Below are positions 47,911-58,382 of a DNA stretch of 58,382 nt, in pieces. The number at the start of each line of letters is the position of its first letter. Positions within the stretch are counted from its first letter, which is position 1. The notes beneath the pieces are model-generated. The model did not search any database. It saw only the letters and a program-made list of their open reading frames with translations, and was not told where the DNA came from. The stretch is from Bacteroidia bacterium (GTDB taxonomy: Bacteria > Bacteroidota > Bacteroidia > Chitinophagales > UBA2359), in assembly GCA_030427245.1 (NCBI GenBank), contig JAUHXA010000048.1, forward strand, positions 1 to 58,382, in the 5' to 3' direction. The position numbers and the translations under genes were made by a program.

Positions 47911-47958
47911 TTTTTTGTACCAAAAGTGTATAATTTTTATTATTTTTGGTACAAAAAA
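47911..47958. promoter_or_regulatory. Perfect 15-bp inverted repeat in front of a STAND ATPase gene
   Basis: TTTTTTGTACCAAAA (47911-47925) and TTTTGGTACAAAAAA (47944-47958) are exact complements separated by 18 bases. The ATG at 47966 follows after seven bases. A partial direct repeat (AAAAGTATAATTTTTT) lies at 47883. Candidate operator or attachment-type site; a different palindrome sits in front of the paralogous gene at 38115-38205. Confidence 0.8.
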
Positions 47959-47965
47959 GAAATAT

Positions 47966-49390
47966 ATGCTAATAGGTCGCAAAAAAGAAATCGAAAAATT
48001 AGAACAAGTTTTAAGATCGCCGAAAGGGGAAATGATAGCTGTATTAGGAAGAAGGAGAGTTGGTAAGACTTTCCTGGTTAATCATATATATAAAAATGAT
48101 ATTGTTTTTCAGCAAACAGGTGTTAGAAATGCTTCAAATGAAGAACAATTGAGAACTTTTGCTATCGAATTGCAGCGGTTATCTAACAAGAAAATTAAAA
48201 CACCCAAAGATTGGTTAGTAGCCTTTTTTGAATTGCGAGAAGCCTTAGAACCATTGGTGAATCAAGATAAAAAGATTGTTATATTTTTTGATGAATTATC
48301 GTGGTTAGCCGTAAAAGGGTCTAAGTTTTTAGAATTCTTAGGGCATTTTTGGAATAGTTGGGCAGCTTGGGAAAATATCGTTGTTGTATTGTGTGGGTCG
48401 GCTACTTCATGGATTATCAAAAAGGTAATTAACGATAAAGGAGGCTTGCACAATCGAGTGACAACCTACATTAACTTGAAGCCTTTTACATTAACAGAGA
48501 CAGAAGAATTTTTAAAATCAAAACATGCTAATTTTACCCGCTACCAAATCGTGCAATTTTATATGGCTTTTGGTGGAATTCCATTGTATTTAGAAAAAAT
48601 TGATATTACCAAAAGTGCTATACAAAACATCAATGATATTTGTTTTTCAGAAAACGGCTTATTGCGACATGAATTCAATCGATTGTACCCTGCCTTGTTT
48701 GATAATCCCGAAAATCACATTGCCGTGATTCGCACTTTAGCCAAAAGCCAGAAAGGATTGAGTAGAACAGAAATCATTAAAGATGCTAAAATTCCGAATG
48801 GTAGATCCGCAACATTGGTATTAGAAGAGTTGGAACAATCGAGCTTCATTAGAGCATATCGTCCGTTTGGGAAAAAGAAAAAAGGTAAGTTATATCGTAT
48901 TGTAGATGAATATTCTGTGTTCTATTTACGGTTTATCGAAGAGCAACCTTACGAAGGTGATGGCACATTTATGCAATTGAGTCAATTACAGACCTATAAA
49001 ACATGGACAGGTTATGCTTTTGAAAATGTGTGTATGAAACATATTTTGTCCATCAAAAAAGCTTTGGGCGTATCGGGTGTTTACACCCGTACTTTTTCTT
49101 TTCTCAAAAAAGCAACCGAAACAGAAGATGGACTTCAAATAGATATGCTATTAGAACGAGCAGATAGAGTTATAGACCTTTTTGAGATTAAATTCTACAA
49201 TACAGAATTCACAATGACCAAAGCTTATGCCGAGAAGCTTCGTCGAAGAACTCGTCTTTTTATGCAGCTTTCCAAAACGAAATATCAAGTTCGTTTGTCT
49301 ATGATTACTCCTTTTGGGCTAAAAAATCCAAATTATAGTCCAGGGTTGCTGCACAGTGATTTTGGGATTGATGCTTTGTTTTTAGGATGA
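47966..49390 (+). CDS. STAND-type AAA ATPase with PD-(D/E)XK-like C-terminus (paralogue)
   Basis: 474 residues from ATG 47966; an in-frame TTG at 47915 lies inside the palindrome and is less likely. MLIGRKKEIEKLEQVL, Walker A GRRRVGKTFL, Walker B KIVIFFDELSWL, wHTH region, then LQIDMLLERADRVIDLFEIK with Asp/E-x-K. It is clearly related to the protein at 36651-38084 over its whole length, although divergent. Function unknown. Probable DNA-binding switch with a nuclease-like domain. Confidence 0.8.
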   Translation: MLIGRKKEIEKLEQVLRSPKGEMIAVLGRRRVGKTFLVNHIYKNDIVFQQTGVRNASNEEQLRTFAIELQRLSNKKIKTPKDWLVAFFELREALEPLVNQDKKIVIFFDELSWLAVKGSKFLEFLGHFWNSWAAWENIVVVLCGSATSWIIKKVINDKGGLHNRVTTYINLKPFTLTETEEFLKSKHANFTRYQIVQFYMAFGGIPLYLEKIDITKSAIQNINDICFSENGLLRHEFNRLYPALFDNPENHIAVIRTLAKSQKGLSRTEIIKDAKIPNGRSATLVLEELEQSSFIRAYRPFGKKKKGKLYRIVDEYSVFYLRFIEEQPYEGDGTFMQLSQLQTYKTWTGYAFENVCMKHILSIKKALGVSGVYTRTFSFLKKATETEDGLQIDMLLERADRVIDLFEIKFYNTEFTMTKAYAEKLRRRTRLFMQLSKTKYQVRLSMITPFGLKNPNYSPGLLHSDFGIDALFLG

Positions 49391-49409: not shown

Positions 49410-50249
49410 TCAAACTATTACAAAATCCTCGACTCCATCCCCTTCATACCTCGGTATCAGATGAATATGTACATGCGGAATCGTTTGTCCTGCAATTGGA
49501 CCATTGTTGATGCGAATGTTGAAGCCTTCGGGTTGATATTGTTGGGTCAAAAGCTGCTTGACCCGATTGACGACCAGCCAAATAGCTTGTTGCTCTTTGA
49601 AGCGCAGTGAAAAGTAATCGAAAGTGTGGCGTTTTGGAATGATTAGGGAGTGACCTTTGCTGATAGGACGTCGGTCATTCGTCGCATAGACCGTAGCGGA
49701 TTCGGTCAGAAGGGTTCGCTCGGCAAGGGGTTTGCAGAATGGGCAGGAATTTTCACCTCTGAAACCTATCTGATTGAAGTGTCGGTATTCGTAAATTTCG
49801 CAGTGTTCGGCTAACAGAATGCTTTTTTGATTCAATTTCACATTGCATTGATACACATCACATCGTTGTTTGGGGTGATAGCGAAAACCACTTTTTTTGA
49901 TGTCTCGTCGAACGGTGAAATAAGCCGTTCCTGTGGGCTTCAACAGCTCCGAAACTTCCATCAAAACGCCCGCTTGTTCTTCGGGCATCAATACATTCAA
50001 CACATAATGACAAATAATCGTGTCGAATTTCCCTTTTGGAAACTCTGCAAAATAATACGGGTCATAACCTTCTACTTCATAGCCCTTTTGCTGCAAAAAT
50101 TCTACGTCTTTCCCCAATCCACAACCAAAATCTAAGATTCGTCCTTCGAGGTAACCGTTTTGATGGAGGTGACGGGTGGGAAAGGAGGATTTTTGGCGGT
50201 TTTCGACTGTTAGGTGAGAGTTGGGGTTTTGTTTGGATTTGATGAACAC
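49410..50249 (-). CDS. Fusion of a methyltransferase and a HIT-family domain
   Basis: 279 residues. The N-terminal half has the SAM loop ILDFGCGLGKDVE (residues 38-50) and TIICHYVLNVL. The C-terminal half has CPFC (169-172), a KGHSLIIPKRHTFDYF stretch and the histidine triad HVHIH (259-263), which is the HIT active site for nucleotide phosphoramidate or dinucleotide hydrolysis. The combination in one chain is unusual. It is 37 bp downstream of the DGQHR gene on the same strand and may be the last gene of the sulfur-type operon. Its link to that operon is inference. Confidence 0.8.
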   Translation of the reverse strand: MFIKSKQNPNSHLTVENRQKSSFPTRHLHQNGYLEGRILDFGCGLGKDVEFLQQKGYEVEGYDPYYFAEFPKGKFDTIICHYVLNVLMPEEQAGVLMEVSELLKPTGTAYFTVRRDIKKSGFRYHPKQRCDVYQCNVKLNQKSILLAEHCEIYEYRHFNQIGFRGENSCPFCKPLAERTLLTESATVYATNDRRPISKGHSLIIPKRHTFDYFSLRFKEQQAIWLVVNRVKQLLTQQYQPEGFNIRINNGPIAGQTIPHVHIHLIPRYEGDGVEDFVIV

Positions 50250-50286
50250 TACTTAATATTCAATAATATACTAATAGATACAAGAA

Positions 50287-52311
50287 CTAATCAAGGCTTC
50301 CTTCAATCTGTTTTTCAGACCATTCTTTCAATGCATTGCTAAGATATTCGTTTAAAAAATCTCTTTTAGCATTTAGAATGTTTTTTGTAACAGCTTCGTT
50401 AATTCCGACTTTCACATTTTGTTCTTTTTCTAATCGATTACTAATTCTACTCGGTGCATATTTCATTTCGTGAAATTCACTTTCAGAAGGGTAGGAGATA
50501 TTTTCAGAAAATGAAAAATTATTCATTTTAAAAAACGATTCTATATAATTAAATACGCATCTTAAAGCTTGAATACCTTGATTGTTATATATAATAAAAG
50601 AGCCTTTATAAATAATATCTTCCCAAAAACTAGATGCCTGTACTCCATAATTAACTATACTGTAGTCTTTTTGAAATTTAGGAGGAATAGCTTCACTATG
50701 ACCTTTTAAACCAAAAATAGAATAATCATTTGAATAATTATTAAGTATTTTAAATATTTTATTATACGTATTAATAAATTCACTGGCTGCTTCCTCTACC
50801 TTTTCTTCTGTTACTTCACTTCCAATAAAACTATCTATTCTTTTGAAAAAGATTTCAAATAGAGTCTTTTGTCCTAGTACAGTGAGTAGCAAATAAAATT
50901 TTGGTTCTAATTGTTCTTTTAATTCTTGTTCAGTTTCCTTATAAATATTCTTTTGGTTTTCATTAAATTTTTTAGGGCTTGTCACAAGTATTTTACTTAA
51001 AGTGTAGTTCTTATCAAATGCATTCTTTTTTTCTAAAATAGAAATAGCTTTTTTATAATAATATAATTCCGTAAAAAATCGAACAATTGATTTACAATAA
51101 ACTTGAATGAATACCTTTTGAGCTACTTCAAGAACATAATAATCATAATTGAATAAAAGTGCTTCTAAATTATCATCATCATCATCTTTATCTTTAGCAA
51201 TCTCTTTCTCATATCTCTTTAAAGATGAGTGGAGTGTTTCTATTTCATTATATTCTACTAAATCTTTAATCTTCTCATCAACTAAAAATCTTCCTCGAAG
51301 TCTACTAACCCATCTTTTAACTTTTGATTTTTTTCTTAAATCGTCTATAGATATTAAGTTACTTCTATTTAGTATGACATCAGACATTATTTGATACAAT
51401 ACCAAAACACCTGTAATGTGGGGTAATTGATGTTTCAGATTCTCAGAATGCCAATCTACTAATTGTGGGATTAAATATTTACCTTGTCGTTCATTGTGAA
51501 TATCATCATCGTTTACAAGAGCTTGAACAAAAAGAGAGGCTAAATCTTTGTCATCCATTAAGCACTTGCGAGCATTCGTAACAGGAACAGCTGTGTAATT
51601 TATATCAATAAAAATTCTTCTTACAGCTTCAACAGGAGCTATATTTTCATTTTTTGCTCTTTCACTTAAATCAATAAAAACAACATCCTGTAAATATTCA
51701 TTAACATCAACGTTTGTTTTCGCAGCTTCTTTTAGTGATTCTAATCTATGTTGACCATCGATTACTACAGCATAGTATTTTTGTTTATTCCAGCAAAGTA
51801 ATTTATATCGAAAATCAGGTAAAATATCTAATACGAAAAAACCATCAATCAAACTTCGATTGGGAGCTTTCATAAATAGCGGTTTGGCATCTTCATTATT
51901 TGAAAATTTAGATTTTTTATAAATGAATTCCCTTTCACTATCTTTTAATTCTTCTCGCAAGTTAAATTGAGGAGATATTCCTCTTTTATTATCGCGAGGT
52001 AAAATTGCAATAATAATAGGTGGAAAATATTTTATATTTCGTTCTCTAAGTATGTATTGACTTGCTATTTTTTTGATTCGTTGCCTGTCTATGTCTCGTT
52101 GAATTATTTGACTTACAGGCCAAGATTTATCTTGGGTCAACTTTTCAAAAGTTTCTATATCTGATTTTAACTTAGAAACTTTTGCAGAACAAAAATAAGT
52201 TCTAATTCCTTTATTTTCAATACCAAAACCCCCTTCATCCACCTCATAGATGTTGGAAACGTCTAAATCTGTTTTGCTAGCTTGTATTTTAGATATACTA
52301 AATAAATCCAT
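50287..52311 (-). CDS. DGQHR-domain protein (DndB-like)
   Basis: 674 residues. The motif D-G-Q-H-R is at residues 185-189 (VIDGQHRLESL), preceded by FPPIIIAILPRDNKRG and followed by VFIDLSERAKNENIAPVEAVRR. This is the signature of DndB and related ParB-like DGQHR proteins, where DndB regulates or binds phosphorothioate loci. It is longer than typical DndB (about 350-400 residues). It is strikingly AT-rich relative to most of the window. 11 bp after the GIY-YIG gene. Confidence 0.8.
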   Translation of the reverse strand: MDLFSISKIQASKTDLDVSNIYEVDEGGFGIENKGIRTYFCSAKVSKLKSDIETFEKLTQDKSWPVSQIIQRDIDRQRIKKIASQYILRERNIKYFPPIIIAILPRDNKRGISPQFNLREELKDSEREFIYKKSKFSNNEDAKPLFMKAPNRSLIDGFFVLDILPDFRYKLLCWNKQKYYAVVIDGQHRLESLKEAAKTNVDVNEYLQDVVFIDLSERAKNENIAPVEAVRRIFIDINYTAVPVTNARKCLMDDKDLASLFVQALVNDDDIHNERQGKYLIPQLVDWHSENLKHQLPHITGVLVLYQIMSDVILNRSNLISIDDLRKKSKVKRWVSRLRGRFLVDEKIKDLVEYNEIETLHSSLKRYEKEIAKDKDDDDDNLEALLFNYDYYVLEVAQKVFIQVYCKSIVRFFTELYYYKKAISILEKKNAFDKNYTLSKILVTSPKKFNENQKNIYKETEQELKEQLEPKFYLLLTVLGQKTLFEIFFKRIDSFIGSEVTEEKVEEAASEFINTYNKIFKILNNYSNDYSIFGLKGHSEAIPPKFQKDYSIVNYGVQASSFWEDIIYKGSFIIYNNQGIQALRCVFNYIESFFKMNNFSFSENISYPSESEFHEMKYAPSRISNRLEKEQNVKVGINEAVTKNILNAKRDFLNEYLSNALKEWSEKQIEGSLD

Positions 52312-52322
52312 ATTAATTATAT

Positions 52323-52910
52323 TTATCCAGGTCTTAAAGTTAGCCCAGGTTTTAAAATTCGTTGTAAAATTTCTTCAAAAATATCACTTAAATTATCATC
52401 TGTTGTTAATTCAATAGTATTAATTCCTATCCATATCTCATTTGGATTTATGTTAGAGTGTTTTTCTATTTCAAAGCGTAAGTCTGTTTTATAAGTTAAA
52501 TGTTGCTTTAAACGTTTTTGGAGACATATTGCTTTCCCAATGTAAAAGGGTCGAGAAAAGCACATATTTTTGAAAAAATTAGAGAATGTAATACGATTTT
52601 TTTCTAAATTAAGATATTTTAACAATGTTCTCTCTTTATCTATCGATAAACCCAATAAAGTGTCTTTCTGAGGAAAACTACTTTCTCTTACCTTTACAGT
52701 AAATTTAAATTTAGTCGTTCTTTCAGGATATGTCAAATTTACATTTTTGTATTTATTCAAAGGTGCAATAAATGAAGAAACATCTTTTTCTTTTGGATTT
52801 AGTTTGGGCCAATAAACCCAAGAATAGATACCTTCTTTATTAGTTATATCATCAGTTGAAGCTTCTAAATATGACATATTTAGATAAAAGAAATCATTAT
52901 GTTCAATCAT
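52323..52910 (-). CDS. GIY-YIG-like endonuclease with a long insertion
   Basis: 195 residues from ATG 52910, which follows an AGAAAAAG ribosome-binding stretch; a GTG at 52940 overlaps the upstream gene. GIY is at residues 27-29 and YIG at 123-125 (FYIGKAICLQKRLKQHL), with an Arg (R133) and C-terminal Glu residues. In normal GIY-YIG domains these elements are 10-20 residues apart; here about 90 residues intervene. The fold is therefore likely but unproven. Part of the DndC-like operon. Confidence 0.65.
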   Translation of the reverse strand: MIEHNDFFYLNMSYLEASTDDITNKEGIYSWVYWPKLNPKEKDVSSFIAPLNKYKNVNLTYPERTTKFKFTVKVRESSFPQKDTLLGLSIDKERTLLKYLNLEKNRITFSNFFKNMCFSRPFYIGKAICLQKRLKQHLTYKTDLRFEIEKHSNINPNEIWIGINTIELTTDDNLSDIFEEILQRILKPGLTLRPG

Positions 52911-52920
52911 GTCTTTTTCT

Positions 52921-54027
52921 TTAAATAAAACAAGCAGCACACCCCTCTTCCTCTGCTTCTCCTAAAATATCTAATAATAAATCAGAGCGAGAATTAGCCG
53001 CTGCATGTTCGACTCTTTTGATATTGTCTTCTTTTATTTGTTGGATACGTTCGGGAAGTATGAGTTCAGCCAAACTTTCATCTTGTATCCAAGTATAGCC
53101 GTCTTTTTCATAGTCCATTGCCAATTCATAGAGATGAGGATGTTGTTCATACAACCAAACCCATTCTATTTTCTGTTGGAAAAAACAAAAATAACATCCC
53201 GAACGGCTGCGTGCATAGTAGCCCTCTTGTCCCTCAACTTGATAAGCTACTTTTTTGTAGTATTCAGGTACACCTATGCCGCTATTTTCCAATATCTGAA
53301 AAATATCTTCTCTGACCAAATTATCTTCGTTTTCTAACAAAGAAAAATCTTTTTCCTTTGCCAAAGGATATTTGGTGTTTTTAAGGAATTGAAAAACTAC
53401 TTTGTTAAAGGTCGCAGTTCCCGCATCCAAAAGGGATTCTAATTTTTGTTTTTGAGGAAATTCAAAAGAAAGAGGTTGTTCCAAATAAGGACGGAGCGCA
53501 TTAAAATCTCCCTCATTGCTGTTCTCCTCATACAAACGAACTATTTGAGCAATATTGCTATTATTCAATACTTTGTTAATAACATCTTCACTCCAAATAT
53601 TGCGGCGGAAAGGAAAAATAGATTGAATGTTGGTTTTTTTAGAAATATAGCCTTCTCTGCTTTCGTCGCCTCTAATGCCTACATACGAAATAACAGGGTC
53701 ATCTTTTATCCAATCCTCAAAAGGTTTTAGTTTCAATTCACGGGTACACCATCTGGAAAAATGGGAAGGGAGGTAGTTGCCTTTTATTTTTAATAAGTAA
53801 TCAAAAGGGGAATGTAAGCTGTCTTTTTTAGCTTGTAACTTAACAATTTTTTTTCCTAAGTATTTTTCTAATTTTTCAACAAGTTCATAGGTTTCATCTA
53901 GTTCTTTACCTGTATCGCAGGTATAATACTCAATATCTAATTCAGGATGTTTGTTTTTGAGATAGATAGCCAAAGCAGCACTGTCCTTGCCTCCTGATAT
54001 GCCCAATACATGTCTAACTTTACCCAT
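52921..54027 (-). CDS. DndC-like PP-loop / PAPS-reductase family protein
   Basis: 368 residues. PP-loop S11-G-G-K-D-S16 binds ATP, followed by YYTCDTG (C37), FSRWCTRELKLKP (C94), and Cys pair GCYFC (C278, C281), with a second pair at the C-terminus (C363, C366). These features are those of DndC-like and PAPS reductase-like enzymes, which activate or transfer sulfur with an iron-sulfur cluster. DndA/IscS would be expected to supply sulfur but is absent here. It is 4 bp downstream of the ATPase gene. Confidence 0.8.
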   Translation of the reverse strand: MGKVRHVLGISGGKDSAALAIYLKNKHPELDIEYYTCDTGKELDETYELVEKLEKYLGKKIVKLQAKKDSLHSPFDYLLKIKGNYLPSHFSRWCTRELKLKPFEDWIKDDPVISYVGIRGDESREGYISKKTNIQSIFPFRRNIWSEDVINKVLNNSNIAQIVRLYEENSNEGDFNALRPYLEQPLSFEFPQKQKLESLLDAGTATFNKVVFQFLKNTKYPLAKEKDFSLLENEDNLVREDIFQILENSGIGVPEYYKKVAYQVEGQEGYYARSRSGCYFCFFQQKIEWVWLYEQHPHLYELAMDYEKDGYTWIQDESLAELILPERIQQIKEDNIKRVEHAAANSRSDLLLDILGEAEEEGCAACFI

Positions 54028-54031
54028 AGTT

Positions 54032-57000
54032 TTAGTTGATATATTTTTGCAATAATTTTATCAAAACCGCCTGGTTTACCGCTTTGTCTTTGTCCAATGA
54101 TTTCTCAATTTCATTGTATAAAGCATTGACTTTTTTGTTCTTCTGTTTACTTAACCGCAATTGATGTGCTTTTGTTCCTCCTTTCAGAGTCGTAATGTTT
54201 ATTTTCAATACTTCCTCTTTGGTTTCGTCTATCTCTAATTCATGTAGGTCACAAAGATTGTCCAACTCCCTAAAGATAACAGAGAATTTATCCAATAACA
54301 ATTCTTCTTCTTCATCTCTTAGCTGACTAAGGTTCTTTTTTAAAAGTACAGAAACCATAGAACTAATCCAAGAAGTTTTATCCTCCAAAGGAGAAGTCAG
54401 ACGAGCAAAAAAGATACGTTGATGAGGTAATAAGAGAGGGGTTTTAATAGATTTGTAGCGTTTGGACAATGCTTTTTTATATGCTTTGAAATCCATATTG
54501 CTATAGCCCAAATCCTTTAAAAAACAGCTTTCGATACGACTAATCAAATTTTCGTAGCAAGTTCGCAATACTCTAATTGCTTCTTGCAATTGATGTATAT
54601 AAGCAGCCAAAGATTCATCCGAATCTTTCAAAAATTCAAGGTTGTGATACCCCAATGCCCTCGGAAAATCTTCAAAAAATGTTTTTTCTGGGTCCTTAGC
54701 TACTGAAATTGCCTCCCGAAGTTTAAGCGCACTTTTTTCAATTCGTTTGGTGTTTTTAGTATAGTCTGGAAGTCCTCTATAAAAAGTCAAAAAGGGGCGA
54801 ATGGTTTGTATAAAACTTTGATGGCTCAATTCTTTCGTCTCTTGTTGATTGAGCAGGTCACGGTATTTGTTGAACAAATCCAAACGAATTCCTTCTACAT
54901 TGAAGGTTTTGATTTTGAACTCTTGTGGGACTTTGTAGATAAGGTCAATGACCTCGCTGCTAATAATCGGTACAAAGCGATTGTTTTGAAATAAAGCAAA
55001 CTCATTCCGCTTGATGAACAGAAAGGATGGCATCCAAAAATGGATAAATCCTTTCTTTAGTTTAAGAGGCGGCTTTTTTAGCAGCTTTTCAAACTCCAAA
55101 ATTCCTTTCCGCATTGTTTTTGCCCCTTCGAGAAAACTCTCACTTGTCTCCCAAAGAGAATCGTAAGAAGTATCGGTAGGTTTGTCTAAAAAGTAGTGAT
55201 TGTCATTGCCTTTCTGGTGAATACCTGTTTTTTTGAGAAGGGTAAGGTAAATTGTTTTTTCGGGAGGAAAAGCCGTTTTACTGAATCCCAAATCTTCTTT
55301 TTGCCAGTGTTTGGTCAATGCTCTAAAGTAGTTACGTCTTGCAGTAGCAATCGAACCCGAAATCTTGTCTCGGTTGACCAGTTCGTTTTTGAAAATAGGC
55401 GTAGCTTCATATACTTCTTTGCAAATCTTGGAAAGTCGTTTGTTGAATTGTGTGCGATTCGAGATGCTTAGAATTTGACCATTATAGACCCACTCTACAT
55501 TTTTAGACGTACTGAATAATTGCTTGAAAACGGCATTGTTCAGTTGCTCTACCTCATAGTTTTTAAGGTTTTTAAGTTCTCTCCGTGCTATTTTGTCTTC
55601 ACTCACGATTTCTTGTGTCAGCACATACTCCGTCTTTTTTATTTCGTAGATAATTTCCCGAATTGCTTTGACATTTTTGAAGTAGGCATATAAAATAGCA
55701 GATCCATTTGTTTTGGATTCTTCGACAAGTTGCTCTAAAGAAGCGTCTTTGGAAAAAATAAGATTGATGAAACCGTCAATAGAACCTTTGGGTTGTTCGT
55801 TTTTTGGAAGCGGAGCATTTGATAATCGAAATTCAAAAAATCGAGGAGTTCCTTTTTGGTACTGCTCGGCTTTTGCAGGTAGATAAGGAAAGCTGAAATA
55901 ATTTTGAAGAGAAGTAGTGACATCCTTTACTTTTGGAACTTTACTTGCGGCTTTTAGTAGTTCTTCATCAATGTCAATATCCGTTCCGTCAAATAGAATA
56001 TATTGATTGCGGTATTTAGCAAATCGAATAATTTTTTGACGCTCCAACTTTTCAATCAGTTCGTTTGCATTTTCAATGCCCAAACTCAATTCTCCATAAA
56101 CAGCCAAAAACTCATCATCCAACTTTGCAGCTCTCGAAGCAAAAATATTCAACAAGCCAATGGTTTTGACCAATTTGATTGCAGCCAAAGTATCTTTTTT
56201 GAAACCTCCATCTATTCTTTCAATGGCATCTTTGATTGCTCCCCATTGTGCGAAATGCGGATTGTTTTTAGATGCAATTGTATGATAGTGATTGTATTGA
56301 AGGTAATCATAGACGCAAGCAACATTGTAAAAAGGATTTTGAGTTTGGTCGTAATTTTTCAGACCATGTAAGTCATTGCTTTGCAAAAAAGTAAAAAGAG
56401 AACGCTCGTTTTGACCATACTTTTGTAAGGATAAAGTCAAGATAGATGCACTCAATAAATCAAAGGGTAAAAGTTGAGTAGTTACCTCTTGAGATATTTC
56501 GCTTGATACGGGAACGGCATTTGTTTTATCTAAAAGTTCATTGAGTGTGTCAAAGGATTTTGGAGTAATATTACTTTCTGACAAATTCCCTTTGAGGTAA
56601 TTGGCAGCTAAAAACAACAATTGTTCAACAGGTTCATTGAAAGTAATATCCTTTAAACGTCCACTTACTTTTTCCCATTCATTTCGTTGTTGTTGGGTTA
56701 GGTTCTTTGCATAAGCATTAAAGCTCTGGTGAAGTGTATTGACAAATACGATGCTTTTTTCATCATCATTGATATATTCTGCCAATTGTTGAATAAAATA
56801 GAGTTCTTCTTCAGGCTTATTTTGTGCGGCCTTTTCTAGAAACTTACCAAATTCATCTACCATAATCCATACAATCCCATTCTGAGTTTGTACTTCTTGA
56901 TGCAGATTTTCCAGTGCTTTCAATACATTTTTAGCTGTTCTTTTGCCTTCTATTACTCCTAACTCTTCGCCTAATGCTTGTATAAAAGATTGAGGTTTGC

Positions 57001-57277
57001 CAACAATGTGTAGAAAATGAAAGTTCTTTTTTCCTCCAAATTGACCATTTAATTTGCCAAAGTAAGAAGCTTCATTTCTTAAATTTTGTGTCAGAGCAAC
57101 TAAAAAAGCGGATTTTCCTGTTCCATACGACCCAATAATGCTAAATGAATGAATGCCAACTTTATAATCATTTATAATCTGATTGAATATATTTTGGGCA
57201 TTCGGTGTCGGAATATAATAAAAGTTCCTATCCGTATCACGAATGATATTAACCGATGGTGAAAAATGCACACTCAT
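54032..57277 (-). CDS. Large P-loop ATPase of the sulfur-type operon
   Basis: 1081 residues. Walker A I-G-S-Y-G-T-G-K-S (48-56) and Walker B IMVDE (138-142), the latter in VWIMVDEFGKFLEKA, lie in the N-terminal 150 residues. The remaining 900 residues have no domain I recognise; they are helical and charged and carry several short basic segments. The N-terminal features resemble ATPases of Dnd/BREX-type loci, but I cannot name a family. Tight spacing on both sides (21 and 4 bp) marks it as a core operon member. It is probably the motor that moves or senses DNA; that is inference. Confidence 0.7.
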   Translation of the reverse strand: MSVHFSPSVNIIRDTDRNFYYIPTPNAQNIFNQIINDYKVGIHSFSIIGSYGTGKSAFLVALTQNLRNEASYFGKLNGQFGGKKNFHFLHIVGKPQSFIQALGEELGVIEGKRTAKNVLKALENLHQEVQTQNGIVWIMVDEFGKFLEKAAQNKPEEELYFIQQLAEYINDDEKSIVFVNTLHQSFNAYAKNLTQQQRNEWEKVSGRLKDITFNEPVEQLLFLAANYLKGNLSESNITPKSFDTLNELLDKTNAVPVSSEISQEVTTQLLPFDLLSASILTLSLQKYGQNERSLFTFLQSNDLHGLKNYDQTQNPFYNVACVYDYLQYNHYHTIASKNNPHFAQWGAIKDAIERIDGGFKKDTLAAIKLVKTIGLLNIFASRAAKLDDEFLAVYGELSLGIENANELIEKLERQKIIRFAKYRNQYILFDGTDIDIDEELLKAASKVPKVKDVTTSLQNYFSFPYLPAKAEQYQKGTPRFFEFRLSNAPLPKNEQPKGSIDGFINLIFSKDASLEQLVEESKTNGSAILYAYFKNVKAIREIIYEIKKTEYVLTQEIVSEDKIARRELKNLKNYEVEQLNNAVFKQLFSTSKNVEWVYNGQILSISNRTQFNKRLSKICKEVYEATPIFKNELVNRDKISGSIATARRNYFRALTKHWQKEDLGFSKTAFPPEKTIYLTLLKKTGIHQKGNDNHYFLDKPTDTSYDSLWETSESFLEGAKTMRKGILEFEKLLKKPPLKLKKGFIHFWMPSFLFIKRNEFALFQNNRFVPIISSEVIDLIYKVPQEFKIKTFNVEGIRLDLFNKYRDLLNQQETKELSHQSFIQTIRPFLTFYRGLPDYTKNTKRIEKSALKLREAISVAKDPEKTFFEDFPRALGYHNLEFLKDSDESLAAYIHQLQEAIRVLRTCYENLISRIESCFLKDLGYSNMDFKAYKKALSKRYKSIKTPLLLPHQRIFFARLTSPLEDKTSWISSMVSVLLKKNLSQLRDEEEELLLDKFSVIFRELDNLCDLHELEIDETKEEVLKINITTLKGGTKAHQLRLSKQKNKKVNALYNEIEKSLDKDKAVNQAVLIKLLQKYIN

Positions 57278-57298
57278 TTTATTGAAGTTTGTTTTGGA

Positions 57299-58180
57299 TT
57301 AGGAAACCAATGTTTGATAGTAGCTTTGCAGTATTTCCCATTTATCGGGTTTTTCTTTGAATTGAAGTTCTCTTACCCCTGCATCTTCTTTATAAACTAA
57401 AAAAGAATAACGATTGGTTAGTTCTTCAATTTTAGACATTAACCCATTGGCAGTTAGTGCATAAACTACACCAATACTGTTTTTGTCATTCAACAAACTA
57501 ATAAAAGACATGGATGATTGCCAATTGGGATTGTCCAAAATAGAAAACAACAAAATTTCAATTGGTAAATCTGCCCTTTCTGTTGCTTCGATTTTGTACC
57601 AATTGCTCCCTCCTGTTTCTACTTTGTCTATTTCTTTCAATAAGCCCAATTCTATCAACAAACCCGAAAAATCATCCTCTACATTTTGAGAGCTGCTTTT
57701 TGGTAGCAAATAATTGCGAATGAAAACACCAATATCCCTTTTCAAGCTGTTAGGAGATACTGTGAAATTTTCCTGTTTACAAACTCTTTTTAGAAAATGA
57801 AATAGATGTTCTTTGGTAAATTCTATTCGTTCTTTTCTAAACTGATTGAAGACCAAAGAATAAATTGAAGCAATTTCTTTGGTAACCAAATGATAGTGTA
57901 ATAACCAAAGTGTTCCAATATCTTCTAAATAAGGGTCTGTTCCATTCTTGCTAAATATATAATCTGCAAGTTCGGTAGTTTTTTGATAATTTTCTTCAAC
58001 AATATAGAAAGATTTTAGCCAAAATCTAATAGAATTGACCATATTTTTTCCAACACCCAAATCAACAACAGCTGTGTCGCTGTTAAATTTTTCATCTGCT
58101 TTTACAAAATCATAGCCTTTCTTTAACCAAAAATGTCGGCAGTGAAAGGTGTCGTGCCCACTGAAAATATACTTTGCCAT
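57299..58180 (-). CDS. DUF4007-family protein
   Basis: 293 residues. Conserved-looking start YIFSGHDTFHCRHFWLKKGYD, then AVVDLGVGKNMVNSIRFWL and GTLWLLHYHLVTKE; these features match DUF4007 as I know it, a family of unknown function often found next to PAPS-reductase-like genes. It is first in the operon. A TAnnTTTG box lies 6 bp before the ATG, so the transcript may start at or near the initiation codon. Confidence 0.75.
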   Translation of the reverse strand: MAKYIFSGHDTFHCRHFWLKKGYDFVKADEKFNSDTAVVDLGVGKNMVNSIRFWLKSFYIVEENYQKTTELADYIFSKNGTDPYLEDIGTLWLLHYHLVTKEIASIYSLVFNQFRKERIEFTKEHLFHFLKRVCKQENFTVSPNSLKRDIGVFIRNYLLPKSSSQNVEDDFSGLLIELGLLKEIDKVETGGSNWYKIEATERADLPIEILLFSILDNPNWQSSMSFISLLNDKNSIGVVYALTANGLMSKIEELTNRYSFLVYKEDAGVRELQFKEKPDKWEILQSYYQTLVS

Positions 58181-58248: not shown

Positions 58249-58382
58249 TTAAAGTTCCCGCACCCAAATATTCCGATACCTCACCAAATCCCCATGATCC
58301 TGCAAGCGCAAAGGCATTTTTTCGGGATGCGGAAAATAGCTCGATTTGCCGATGTAGGCTGTTGGCCCTTCGAGTTCCGTGT
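58249..58382 (-). CDS. DUF1080 (3-keto-disaccharide hydrolase-like) protein, C-terminal end only
   Basis: The minus-strand frame ends PLRLQDHGDLVRYRNIWVRE and then Leu and stop at 58249-58251. This is the characteristic C-terminal end of DUF1080 laminarin-like secreted glycan hydrolases (typical ending LQDHGNPVRFRNIWIR). Only about 44 residues are in the window, and the start lies to the right. It bounds the six-gene operon on its upstream side. Confidence 0.8.
   Translation of the reverse strand, partial: TELEGPTAYIGKSSYFPHPEKMPLRLQDHGDLVRYRNIWVREL

What the first reader, a model, noticed from the sequence alone, without database searches (positions are those of the whole stretch)
49410..58180. 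Six-gene operon resembling a variant DNA sulfur-modification or defence system
Transcription order: DUF4007-like, 1081-residue P-loop ATPase, DndC-like PP-loop enzyme with four to six Cys, GIY-YIG-like nuclease, DGQHR (DndB-like) protein, methyltransferase-HIT fusion. All genes are on the minus strand with 4-37 bp spacings. Known phosphorothioation systems use DndA/IscS, DndB, DndC, DndD and DndE; here only B- and C-like parts appear, together with a different ATPase and DUF4007. The right border is a DUF1080 hydrolase gene and the left border an unrelated STAND ATPase, so the set looks complete. It may modify or recognise DNA in a new way. I cannot confirm whether this gene set has been described.
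Basis: partly seen in the sequence, partly recalled or inferred. Interest (0 to 1): 0.88.

Follow-up and report, generated by a model that had tools for sequence, protein, structure and literature searches.

The report
Sulfur-marking DNA defence with odd nuclease
The six genes join a known bacterial machine that puts sulfur into the DNA backbone (Ssp) to a different set of cutting and accessory genes that probably attack unmarked phage DNA; the marking part is known, the pairing looks new.

Summary
In detail: six closely spaced minus-strand genes at 49410-58180. The DUF4007 protein, the 1081-aa ATPase and the PP-loop enzyme are SspB, SspC and SspD, the known DNA phosphorothioation (PT) module (PADLOC E 1.3e-108, 0, 1.2e-93). 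No local dndA is needed; the genome holds an IscS. What is unusual is the rest: in place of SspE or SspFGH come a GIY-YIG-like nuclease, a long DGQHR (DndB-superfamily) protein and a methyltransferase-HIT fusion. GIY-YIG + DGQHR is not a one-off: smaller pairs follow intact SspBCD in three Bacteroidota loci and on a Roseobacter plasmid, in the same order, and sit beside dndC-dndD in two others. The window's pair is a very divergent version, linked to them mainly through the DGQHR protein. The MT-HIT is a mobile partner of HNH nucleases, mostly with no ssp genes in the fetched stretch. SspBCD of this clade is an exchange platform: the downstream cassette changes widely on the SspD tree. Best reading: an Ssp system with a third kind of restriction module. 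New variant of a known kind.

The parts
57299..58180 (-). sspB (DUF4007; tripartite helix-turn-helix DNA-binding subunit according to PMC12839542)
   Evidence: Pfam DUF4007 E 2.7e-81, full length; PADLOC SspB E 1.3e-108
54032..57277 (-). sspC (AAA+ ATPase of the SspC/BrxC group), Walker A GSYGTGKS
   Evidence: PADLOC SspC E 0, 1369 bits, model 1-1038 of 1039; motif
52921..54027 (-). sspD, long form (PP-loop/PAPS-reductase-like sulfurtransferase with an insertion at about position 157 of the 277-position model and C-terminal Cys pairs)
   Evidence: PADLOC SspD E 1.2e-93; 51-65% identity to 10 long-form relatives, SGGKDS and five Cys invariant
52323..52940 (-). GIY-YIG-like endonuclease with roughly 70-90 residues between the GIY and YIG motifs; presumed restriction nuclease
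   Evidence: Pfam GIY-YIG E 0.055, 14.2 bits, below cut-off 22.6; motif set GIY...YIG...R...E...P (pattern written after seeing the protein)
50287..52311 (-). long DGQHR protein (DndB/ParB-Srx superfamily), presumed PT-sensing NTPase partner of the nuclease
   Evidence: Pfam DndB 29.7 bits (cut-off 29.1); TIGR03187 53.7 bits (cut-off 58.85); QR, DGQHR and F...N positions invariant in 8 aligned sequences; tblastn to GIY-linked DGQHR genes
49410..50249 (-). methyltransferase-HIT fusion; accessory partner of nucleases, function unknown
   Evidence: Pfam HIT E 2.6e-21, Methyltransf_23 E 3.9e-12; TIGR04096 E 2.9e-15 but 56 bits against cut-off 150; HVHIH
47915..49390 (+). left border, convergent: STAND/ATPase_2 protein, PADLOC candidate PDC-S27; probably a separate defence gene
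   Evidence: PADLOC E 6.2e-185
58249..58382 (-). right border: C-terminus of a 3-keto-disaccharide hydrolase gene, cut by the contig end; not part of the system
   Evidence: PF06439 E 9.4e-6, 26.2 bits against cut-off 26.8

Best explanation
An Ssp-type DNA phosphorothioation defence system with an unusual restriction module. [quoted passage not shown] Restriction step (inferred): the DGQHR protein is the PT-reading NTPase, doing what the N-terminal DGQQR domain of SspE does, and licenses the separate GIY-YIG nuclease to cut or nick DNA without the mark: a 'split SspE' with GIY-YIG in place of HNH. The MT-HIT fusion is an accessory of the nuclease (regulation, end or nucleotide processing, or self-protection), whose task cannot be told from sequence. 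Shown: the SspBCD core; recurrence of smaller GIY-YIG + DGQHR pairs next to SspBCD and Dnd; the MT-HIT's link with nucleases elsewhere. Inferred: all biochemical activity, PT in this genome, antiphage effect, the division of labour, and that the window's divergent pair does the same job as the smaller pairs.
For: SspB, C, D full-length profile matches. An IscS elsewhere in the genome passes NF010611 (654.9 vs 548; it just misses TIGR02006, 626.6 vs 643.2). Smaller GIY-YIG (166-178 aa) + DGQHR (411-422 aa) genes directly follow SspD, with SspB, C and D all present, in L086, L115 and L119; L123 has SspB-C-D, the GIY, then the contig end; L142 (adjacent) and L041 (one gene between) have the pair on the other strand. 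Roseobacter litoralis pROLI83 has desulfurase-SspB-SspC-SspD-GIY-DGQHR. L057 and Rhizobium NXC14 have the pair beside dndC-dndD. Link from the window's own protein: its DGQHR finds few relatives, 2 other genomes of 395 and 3 plasmid records of 72,556 (one identical protein), and of these three distinct proteins two (L057; Rhizobium WP_209186591.1) are DGQHR genes directly after a small GIY. NXC14 holds a true DndB (443.6 bits, cut-off 328) besides the GIY-linked DGQHR (63.2 bits), so the latter is not simply the regulator DndB. DGQHR and DUF262 domains share motifs and predicted fold (PMC4619093, passages); SspE's DGQQR domain is the PT-stimulated GTPase that licenses its HNH (PMC13251355, passages; PMC9646914, abstract).
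Against: The window's GIY has no close relative: own genome only in 296 of the phylum; own plus five weak matches of 28-34% in 298 of the order; none in plasmids or phages. Profile comparison links it to the smaller family only over 25-26 columns (Prob 7.8-15.5); its Pfam score is below cut-off and the usual final Asn is absent. The DGQHR link is local (columns 57-311, Prob 90, E 1.7e-6), and one of its three distinct BLAST relatives (L056) has no GIY-like neighbour by profile. Structure predictions were poor (pLDDT 42 and 44). The pair of the three Rhizobium Ti plasmids (one identical locus) shows no PT-modification genes in 14 kb. In L069 the SspB-SspC region is broken or misassembled (SspB 1-136 runs into SspC 698-1077). 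PT itself and phage defence are untested.
Confidence: 0.7

Rival explanations
1. The DGQHR protein is a DndB-like negative regulator of PT insertion and the GIY-YIG nuclease is a stand-alone suicide or backup effector released when the main system fails; neither reads PT.
For: DndB has been described as an ATP-dependent regulator, and GIY-YIG (URI) genes near Dnd were proposed to be backup suicide effectors, often at the boundary and sometimes on the other strand (PMC10853773, section 17 and passages). In L041 and L142 the pair is on the opposite strand from SspBCD.
Against: No other restriction gene is in the operon. The GIY is co-directional and directly after SspD in six loci (L069, L086, L115, L119, L123, pROLI83) against two on the other strand. 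NXC14 has a separate true DndB besides the GIY-linked DGQHR.
Confidence: 0.2
2. The MT-HIT gene is a passenger from a different two-gene defence cassette (HNH + MT-HIT) that joined the operon; only the first five genes form the PT system.
For: Full-length MT-HIT occurs in 15 of 296 Bacteroidota genomes, this one included. In 13 of the 14 others it is directly beside one HNH-like family, in the last (L187) beside a different HNH-like protein seen by eye; only 1 of 14 (L193) has ssp genes in the stretch, with SspC cut short and no SspD found. In L184 and L185 the upstream side is hidden by the contig end.
Against: Here it is the last gene of a tight co-directional operon. Its N-terminal part matches TIGR04096, a methyltransferase model named for association with phosphorothioation (below cut-off); but the same match is found in L182, which has no ssp genes nearby. 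Of the 80 SspD loci 3 hold an MT-HIT.
Confidence: 0.4
3. It is a Type 4 BREX variant (BrxC, PAPS reductase and DUF4007 are shared with it).
For: SspC also matches BrxC (E 1.3e-74) and SspD matches BrxP weakly; a sub-threshold PglZ match lies in the DGQHR protein (19.9 bits, cut-off 25).
Against: No PglZ over threshold and no BrxL match; SspC and SspD models score far higher than BrxC and BrxP. PglZ was in all 457 Type 4 BREX taxa surveyed and BrxL in 96% (PMC12839542).
Confidence: 0.03
4. PT here serves regulation or redox protection, and the downstream genes are unrelated to defence.
For: PT has been given non-defence roles (titles and starts of abstracts only).
Against: A nuclease-like gene is in the operon and the neighbour gene is a defence candidate; relatives carry other presumed effectors in the same slot.
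Confidence: 0.05

Closest known systems
Ssp system SspABCD-SspE
   Same: SspB, SspC, SspD present in the order B-C-D; the sulfur donor may be IscS; a DGQxR protein of the ParB-like superfamily plus a nuclease follow.
   Different: No SspE at the locus. DGQHR and nuclease are separate proteins, and the nuclease is GIY-YIG-like rather than HNH. SspD is a long form. An extra MT-HIT gene.
SspABCD-SspFGH
   Same: Same SspBCD core with an alternative restriction cassette; a precedent for exchange of the cassette (PMC8092258, abstract and passages).
   Different: No FtsK-like translocase and no second Walker-A protein here.
Dnd systems with a URI/GIY-YIG gene
   Same: GIY-YIG nucleases near Dnd genes are in print (PMC10853773, section 17); L057 and Rhizobium NXC14 show GIY + DGQHR beside dndC-dndD.
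   Different: The marking core here is SspBCD; the passages read do not describe the GIY + DGQHR pairing.
HNH + MT-HIT two-gene cassette (found here)
   Same: Same MT-HIT fusion (48-57% identity).
   Different: The partner is an HNH-like nuclease, and 13 of 14 fetched loci show no ssp genes nearby.

Membership tests
Ssp phosphorothioation module (SspBCD) | SspB (DUF4007) | tested here: met
   PADLOC 1.3e-108, Pfam 2.7e-81
Ssp phosphorothioation module (SspBCD) | SspC ATPase | tested here: met
   1369 bits over model 1-1038 of 1039
Ssp phosphorothioation module (SspBCD) | SspD with SGGKDS PP-loop and Cys residues | tested here: met
Ssp phosphorothioation module (SspBCD) | SspA or substitute IscS | tested here: met
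   not in the locus; IscS on another contig over NF010611 cut-off, just under TIGR02006
Ssp phosphorothioation module (SspBCD) | PT in genomic DNA | not testable with these tools
   needs LC-MS
SspABCD-SspE system | SspE (DUF262 + HNH) with the core | tested here: not met
   none of the six proteins matches SspE. Three DUF262 proteins (open frames of 555, 373 and 530 aa) lie on other contigs and were not typed
Dnd system | DndC, DndD, DndE over cut-off | tested here: not met
   DndC 13.4 vs 290.4 bits (NCBIfam), weak in PADLOC (8.1e-6); no DndD or DndE match
Type 4 BREX | PglZ and BrxL | tested here: not met
   PglZ 19.9 bits vs cut-off 25 inside the DGQHR protein; no BrxL match among the six proteins and the left neighbour
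DGQHR / DndB superfamily | profile score | tested here: inconclusive
   Pfam DndB 29.7 vs 29.1 (just met); TIGR03187 53.7 vs 58.85 (just missed); DndB equivalog 20.9 vs 328 (not met)
DGQHR / DndB superfamily | QR pair, DGQHR, FxxxN | tested here: met
   Q71 R72, D185-R189, F234 and N238 invariant in 8 aligned sequences; motifs as listed in PMC4619093
GIY-YIG nuclease | profile score | tested here: not met
   Pfam 14.2 bits vs 22.6; profile comparison with the smaller GIY family Prob 7.8-15.5
GIY-YIG nuclease | GIY, YIG, Arg, Glu motif set | tested here: met
   full pattern in 0 of 20000 shuffles and 2 of 1743 other proteins; looser pattern 16 of 20000 and 17 of 1743. The pattern was written after seeing the protein; the usual final Asn is replaced
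HIT hydrolase | HIT profile and HxHxH | tested here: met
   76.5 bits vs 21.5, HVHIH
TIGR04096 PT-associated methyltransferase | score over 150 bits | tested here: not met
   56 bits over residues 12-88 only

The most novel reading that the evidence does not exclude
GIY-YIG + DGQHR is a third restriction module for SspBCD, beside SspE and SspFGH: a two-protein 'split SspE' in which a DndB-superfamily NTPase reads the sulfur mark and fires a GIY-YIG nuclease. It also serves Dnd systems, so one restriction pair works with both marking machines. The window holds a highly diverged version with an added methyltransferase-HIT protein. More widely, SspBCD of this clade is a docking core whose effector is exchanged freely.
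Probability: 0.5. Interest if true: 0.65.

Novelty: new variant of a known kind. Interest (0 to 1): 0.5.

Why it matters
How a PT-based system tells self from non-self when only part of the sites carry sulfur is an open question. In the abstracts and passages seen here, few restriction partners have been studied at the bench (SspE, SspFGH, DndFGH, DndI, Pbe), although many nuclease genes lie near Dnd genes. A pair that recurs beside both Ssp and Dnd would give a small, separable sensor-plus-nuclease to test, and the exchange of cassettes would help to explain SspBCD loci that carry neither SspE nor SspFGH.

Tried and rejected
Rejected: ordinary Dnd, Type 4 BREX, and SspE membership of the downstream genes; SspFGH was not seen as a match, but no SspFGH model was named in the outputs, so that rests on the absence of an FtsK-like protein. 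My own idea that the HIT domain strips sulfur from PT nucleotides (recalled for human HINT1; the listing shows only the title and start of the abstract of PMC8775712, on a selenophosphate compared with a thiophosphate) is weakened: in 13 of 14 other genomes MT-HIT has no ssp genes nearby, and only one of those genomes (G111) is in the hit list; whether each of the other 13 was in that draw is not shown. I first took the cassette of L046, L048, L108 and L116 for SspFGH and labelled one row so; one search shows an SspC-like ATPase and a PglZ-like protein in L116, so the label is wrong.

L069 was first counted among intact loci; one search shows its SspB-SspC region broken or misassembled. The confidence of the best explanation went from 0.72 to 0.70 for these two; the link through the window's own DGQHR protein was added.

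Led nowhere: structure predictions of GIY and DGQHR (pLDDT 42 and 44), so no fold search was run; scans of viral contigs with the DGQHR protein and with one small GIY (no relatives); the window GIY against plasmids and phages (none); the motif TANNTTTG upstream of sspB (22 found against 20.07 expected: no signal). One search did not strengthen the GIY link. In one search the input for tblastn was not written and no table came out; searches covered the question. One search stopped at a missing file name and was rerun.

Limits: gene calls in relatives are longest ORFs picked by a script; cassette clusters were chained by phmmer at 1e-5. Cassette types were profile-tested in one or a few representatives each. 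The tree had 85 SspD rows, 71 labelled; loci whose SspD was not called as an ORF, and three duplicates, were dropped. The plasmid gene table is incomplete, so missing neighbours there are weak evidence.
Full report
The observation. The window is one whole contig of a 7.58 Mb assembly of 187 contigs, so the region beyond 58382 cannot be seen, but a hydrolase C-terminus lies between the operon and the contig end (PF06439, just under its cut-off).

What the first three genes are. Against PADLOC the DUF4007 protein is SspB (E 1.3e-108), the large ATPase is SspC (1369 bits over the whole model) and the PP-loop enzyme is SspD (E 1.2e-93). That is the modification core of the Ssp phosphorothioation systems. 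PMC12839542 (section 34 and passages read) states that DUF4007, the BrxC ATPase and the PAPS-reductase of Type 4 BREX correspond to SspB, SspC and SspD. SspA is not in the operon, but an IscS on another contig passes NF010611 (and just misses TIGR02006), and E. coli 3234/A is reported to rely on the host IscS in the same way (PMC13251355, passage). SspD is a long form with an insertion and C-terminal Cys pairs; five Cys are invariant in 11 of 11 long forms. A search of 395 genomes of the phylum with the SspD model found 32 with E <= 1e-10; by the match pattern 12 are long forms like this one (own included) and 9 short, the rest weaker matches.

What the last three genes are. The 205-aa protein has the GIY, YIG, Arg and Glu motifs. 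The full pattern, written after seeing the protein, occurs in 0 of 20000 shuffles and in 2 of 1743 proteins from the fetched loci, both members of another GIY-YIG family; a looser one in 16 of 20000 and 17 of 1743, 9 of these of that family. Its Pfam score is below cut-off. The 674-aa protein carries the three motifs of DGQHR domains (QR, DGQHR, FxxxN, motif list in PMC4619093) and just passes Pfam DndB (29.7 against 29.1 bits). The 279-aa protein is a class I methyltransferase fused to a HIT domain with HVHIH.

The GIY-YIG + DGQHR pair recurs. In 6 of these 80, and in one (L041) of 8 further loci, a smaller GIY-YIG gene (157-178 aa) lies near SspD; in 5 of the 6 and in L041 the neighbouring gene is of the DGQHR/DndB family, and in the sixth (L123) the contig ends. 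In L086, L115 and L119 SspB, SspC and SspD are all there (full-length tblastn matches) and the order SspD - GIY - DGQHR is that of the window. L069 has the same order, but its SspB-SspC region is broken or misassembled and its DGQHR is cut by the contig end. In L142 the pair is next to SspD, and in L041 one gene away, on the other strand. Eight of these proteins were scanned against Pfam: all three DGQHR ones matched DndB at 3e-28 to 2e-32; of five GIY ones three had weak GIY-YIG matches (best 3.2e-4, all under the cut-off) and two none. G-Y, Y-G, Arg, Glu and Asn are invariant in the eight small GIY proteins aligned.

How independent is this? Most of these loci came in through SspD. A profile search with the small GIY found 3 of 296 genomes, all at Ssp or Dnd loci, but the profile holds those very proteins, so the result says only that no further member turned up. 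Loci that came in from the GIY or DGQHR side are four: L057 (found with the window's DGQHR), where DndC and DndD pass NCBIfam cut-offs; Rhizobium NXC14, with GIY - DGQHR - methyltransferase - dndB - dndC - dndD - dndE; Roseobacter litoralis pROLI83, with desulfurase - SspB - SspC - SspD - GIY - DGQHR (its GIY and DGQHR match the Bacteroidota profiles at 9e-28 and 2e-90); and one locus shared by three Rhizobium Ti plasmids, with PIN - GIY - DGQHR and, in K1/93, two more genes and FtsK, without modification genes in the 14 kb shown. Three of four are at PT-modification genes. The NXC14 methyltransferase resembles the window's only as a generic methyltransferase (21% over 101 residues).

The window's pair is a divergent version. 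Its DGQHR has few BLAST relatives: in 395 genomes two besides itself and in 72,556 plasmid records three, all the same protein. Of these three distinct proteins, two (L057 and the Rhizobium one) are DGQHR genes directly after a small GIY; the third (L056, 739 aa) has a PbeC-like ATPase and a DUF2971/PDC-S31 protein nearby. By profile the DGQHR aligns with the smaller family over residues 57-311 (Prob 90, E 1.7e-6), and by tblastn with six of nine loci tested at E <= 1e-3, among them pROLI83 (1.8e-11). The GIY aligns only around the first motif (Prob 7.8-15.5), and close relatives of it were not found. That it has the same role rests on gene order, motifs and the DGQHR link.

MT-HIT. Besides this genome, 14 of 296 hold the full-length fusion at 48-57% identity; most other matches of that search are HIT domains alone. 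In 13 of the 14 it is directly beside a gene of one HNH-like family (weak Cas9-HNH profile matches in the three scanned); in L187 the neighbour is a different HNH-like protein by eye. Only L193 has ssp genes in the fetched stretch, with SspC ending at residue 673 and SspD not found. Among the 80 SspD loci three hold it: L068 (HNH, a KptA/Tpt1-like gene by eye, then MT-HIT cut by the contig end), L074 (SspC only as a C-terminal remnant) and L114 (no SspB or SspC found). It is thus a partner of nucleases that does not need PT genes nearby, and several of its ssp neighbours look decayed. A strict HxHxH pattern was found in 10 of 15 relatives; L074 and L192 have it altered (HASIH, HAALH), and in L184, L193 and L195 the pattern did not match.

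The slot after SspD is exchangeable. Among 85 SspD rows, 71 had a labelled first cassette: 22 DUF262-like (followed by a kinase cluster in 14; two of its members scanned), 17 of a GHKL-ATPase type (one scanned), 8 GIY + DGQHR (window, L069, L123 and the two opposite-strand loci included), 6 and 6 of two other kinds, 3 HNH, 3 Pbe, 2 SspE, 2 of another kind and two single ones. On the SspD tree the labels need 40 changes against 43.5 for shuffled labels (as low in 16 of 200). The 8 GIY + DGQHR rows need 8 changes (at least 5 forced by well-supported branches); the GHKL type is clustered (11 against 15.3; as low in 1 of 500). Cassettes are exchanged widely, though not wholly without regard to ancestry. 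This fits the published compatibility of one SspABCD with SspE and SspFGH (PMC8092258, abstract and passages).

Mechanism. In SspE the N-terminal DUF262/DGQQR domain senses PT and hydrolyses GTP, which licenses the HNH domain to nick DNA (PMC9646914, abstract; PMC13251355, passages). DUF262 and DGQHR domains share motifs and a predicted fold (PMC4619093). The simplest reading of SspBCD - GIY - DGQHR is that sensor and nuclease are two proteins. The main alternative, suicide backup nuclease plus DndB-like regulator, comes from PMC10853773, which reports URI/GIY-YIG genes near Dnd (section 17 read). MT-HIT's role remains open.

Novelty. Searches of the open library for SspBCD with GIY-YIG (0 papers), two of phosphorothioation, GIY-YIG and DGQHR (10), DndB with GIY-YIG (6), two of SspBCD, SspABCD, DUF4007 and restriction effector since 2022 (9, 8 listed), two of phosphorothioation, DUF4007, DGQHR domain-containing and SspD (11), and HIT domain + methyltransferase + HNH + antiphage (0) showed no description of this pairing. 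Of the papers listed I read passages or sections of PMC12839542, PMC10853773, PMC3226654, PMC8092258, PMC4619093 and PMC13251355 and the abstract of PMC9646914; the others were seen as titles and starts of abstracts. Subscription papers, preprints and supplements were not searched, so prior description cannot be excluded. PADLOC 2.0.0 gave no match for the small GIY of L119 or for the window's GIY.

Noticed in passing
L088, L091, L083, L098 and other loci, first genes after SspD: The slot after SspD holds many cassettes: DUF262-like + protein kinase cluster (14 loci), a GHKL-ATPase + two unknowns, a cassette of unknown or weakly matched proteins (c11, c12, c15), and a membrane protein + a nucleoside-deoxyribosyltransferase-like protein (by eye). 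Each is a candidate restriction or abortive module.
   Followed up: partly
L182-L195: HNH-like nuclease + MT-HIT as an adjacent gene pair in 13 of 14 loci, all but one without ssp genes in the stretch; possibly an undescribed defence pair.
   Followed up: partly
L074, L114, L193: ssp genes next to HNH + MT-HIT look decayed: SspC remnant (L074), no SspB/SspC found (L114), SspC cut short and no SspD (L193).
   Followed up: no
L069:7597-9160: SspB residues 1-136 run into SspC residues 698-1077: an internal deletion or a misassembly, ahead of intact SspD and a small GIY.
   Followed up: no
L068:5668-6210: A KptA/Tpt1-like gene (recognised by eye; no PADLOC match) between HNH and MT-HIT after SspD.
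   Followed up: no
L088:13140-19388 and similar stretches: Cysteine desulfurase-like gene (by eye) + PbeA + small gene + SMC-like ATPase + small gene often adjoin SspBCD and its cassette; PbeA matches at 1096 bits in L088.
   Followed up: partly
L116:11120-19294: After SspBCD come two small genes, an SspC-like ATPase of 1550 aa and a PglZ-like protein, a link between Ssp and BREX.
   Followed up: no
L056:6607-12318: Another long DGQHR protein (739 aa) after a PbeC-like ATPase and a small gene and before a PDC-S31/DUF2971 protein.
   Followed up: partly
window 47915-49390: Convergent STAND-type ATPase, PADLOC candidate PDC-S27, 19 nt from the end of the operon; perhaps a second defence gene.
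   Followed up: no
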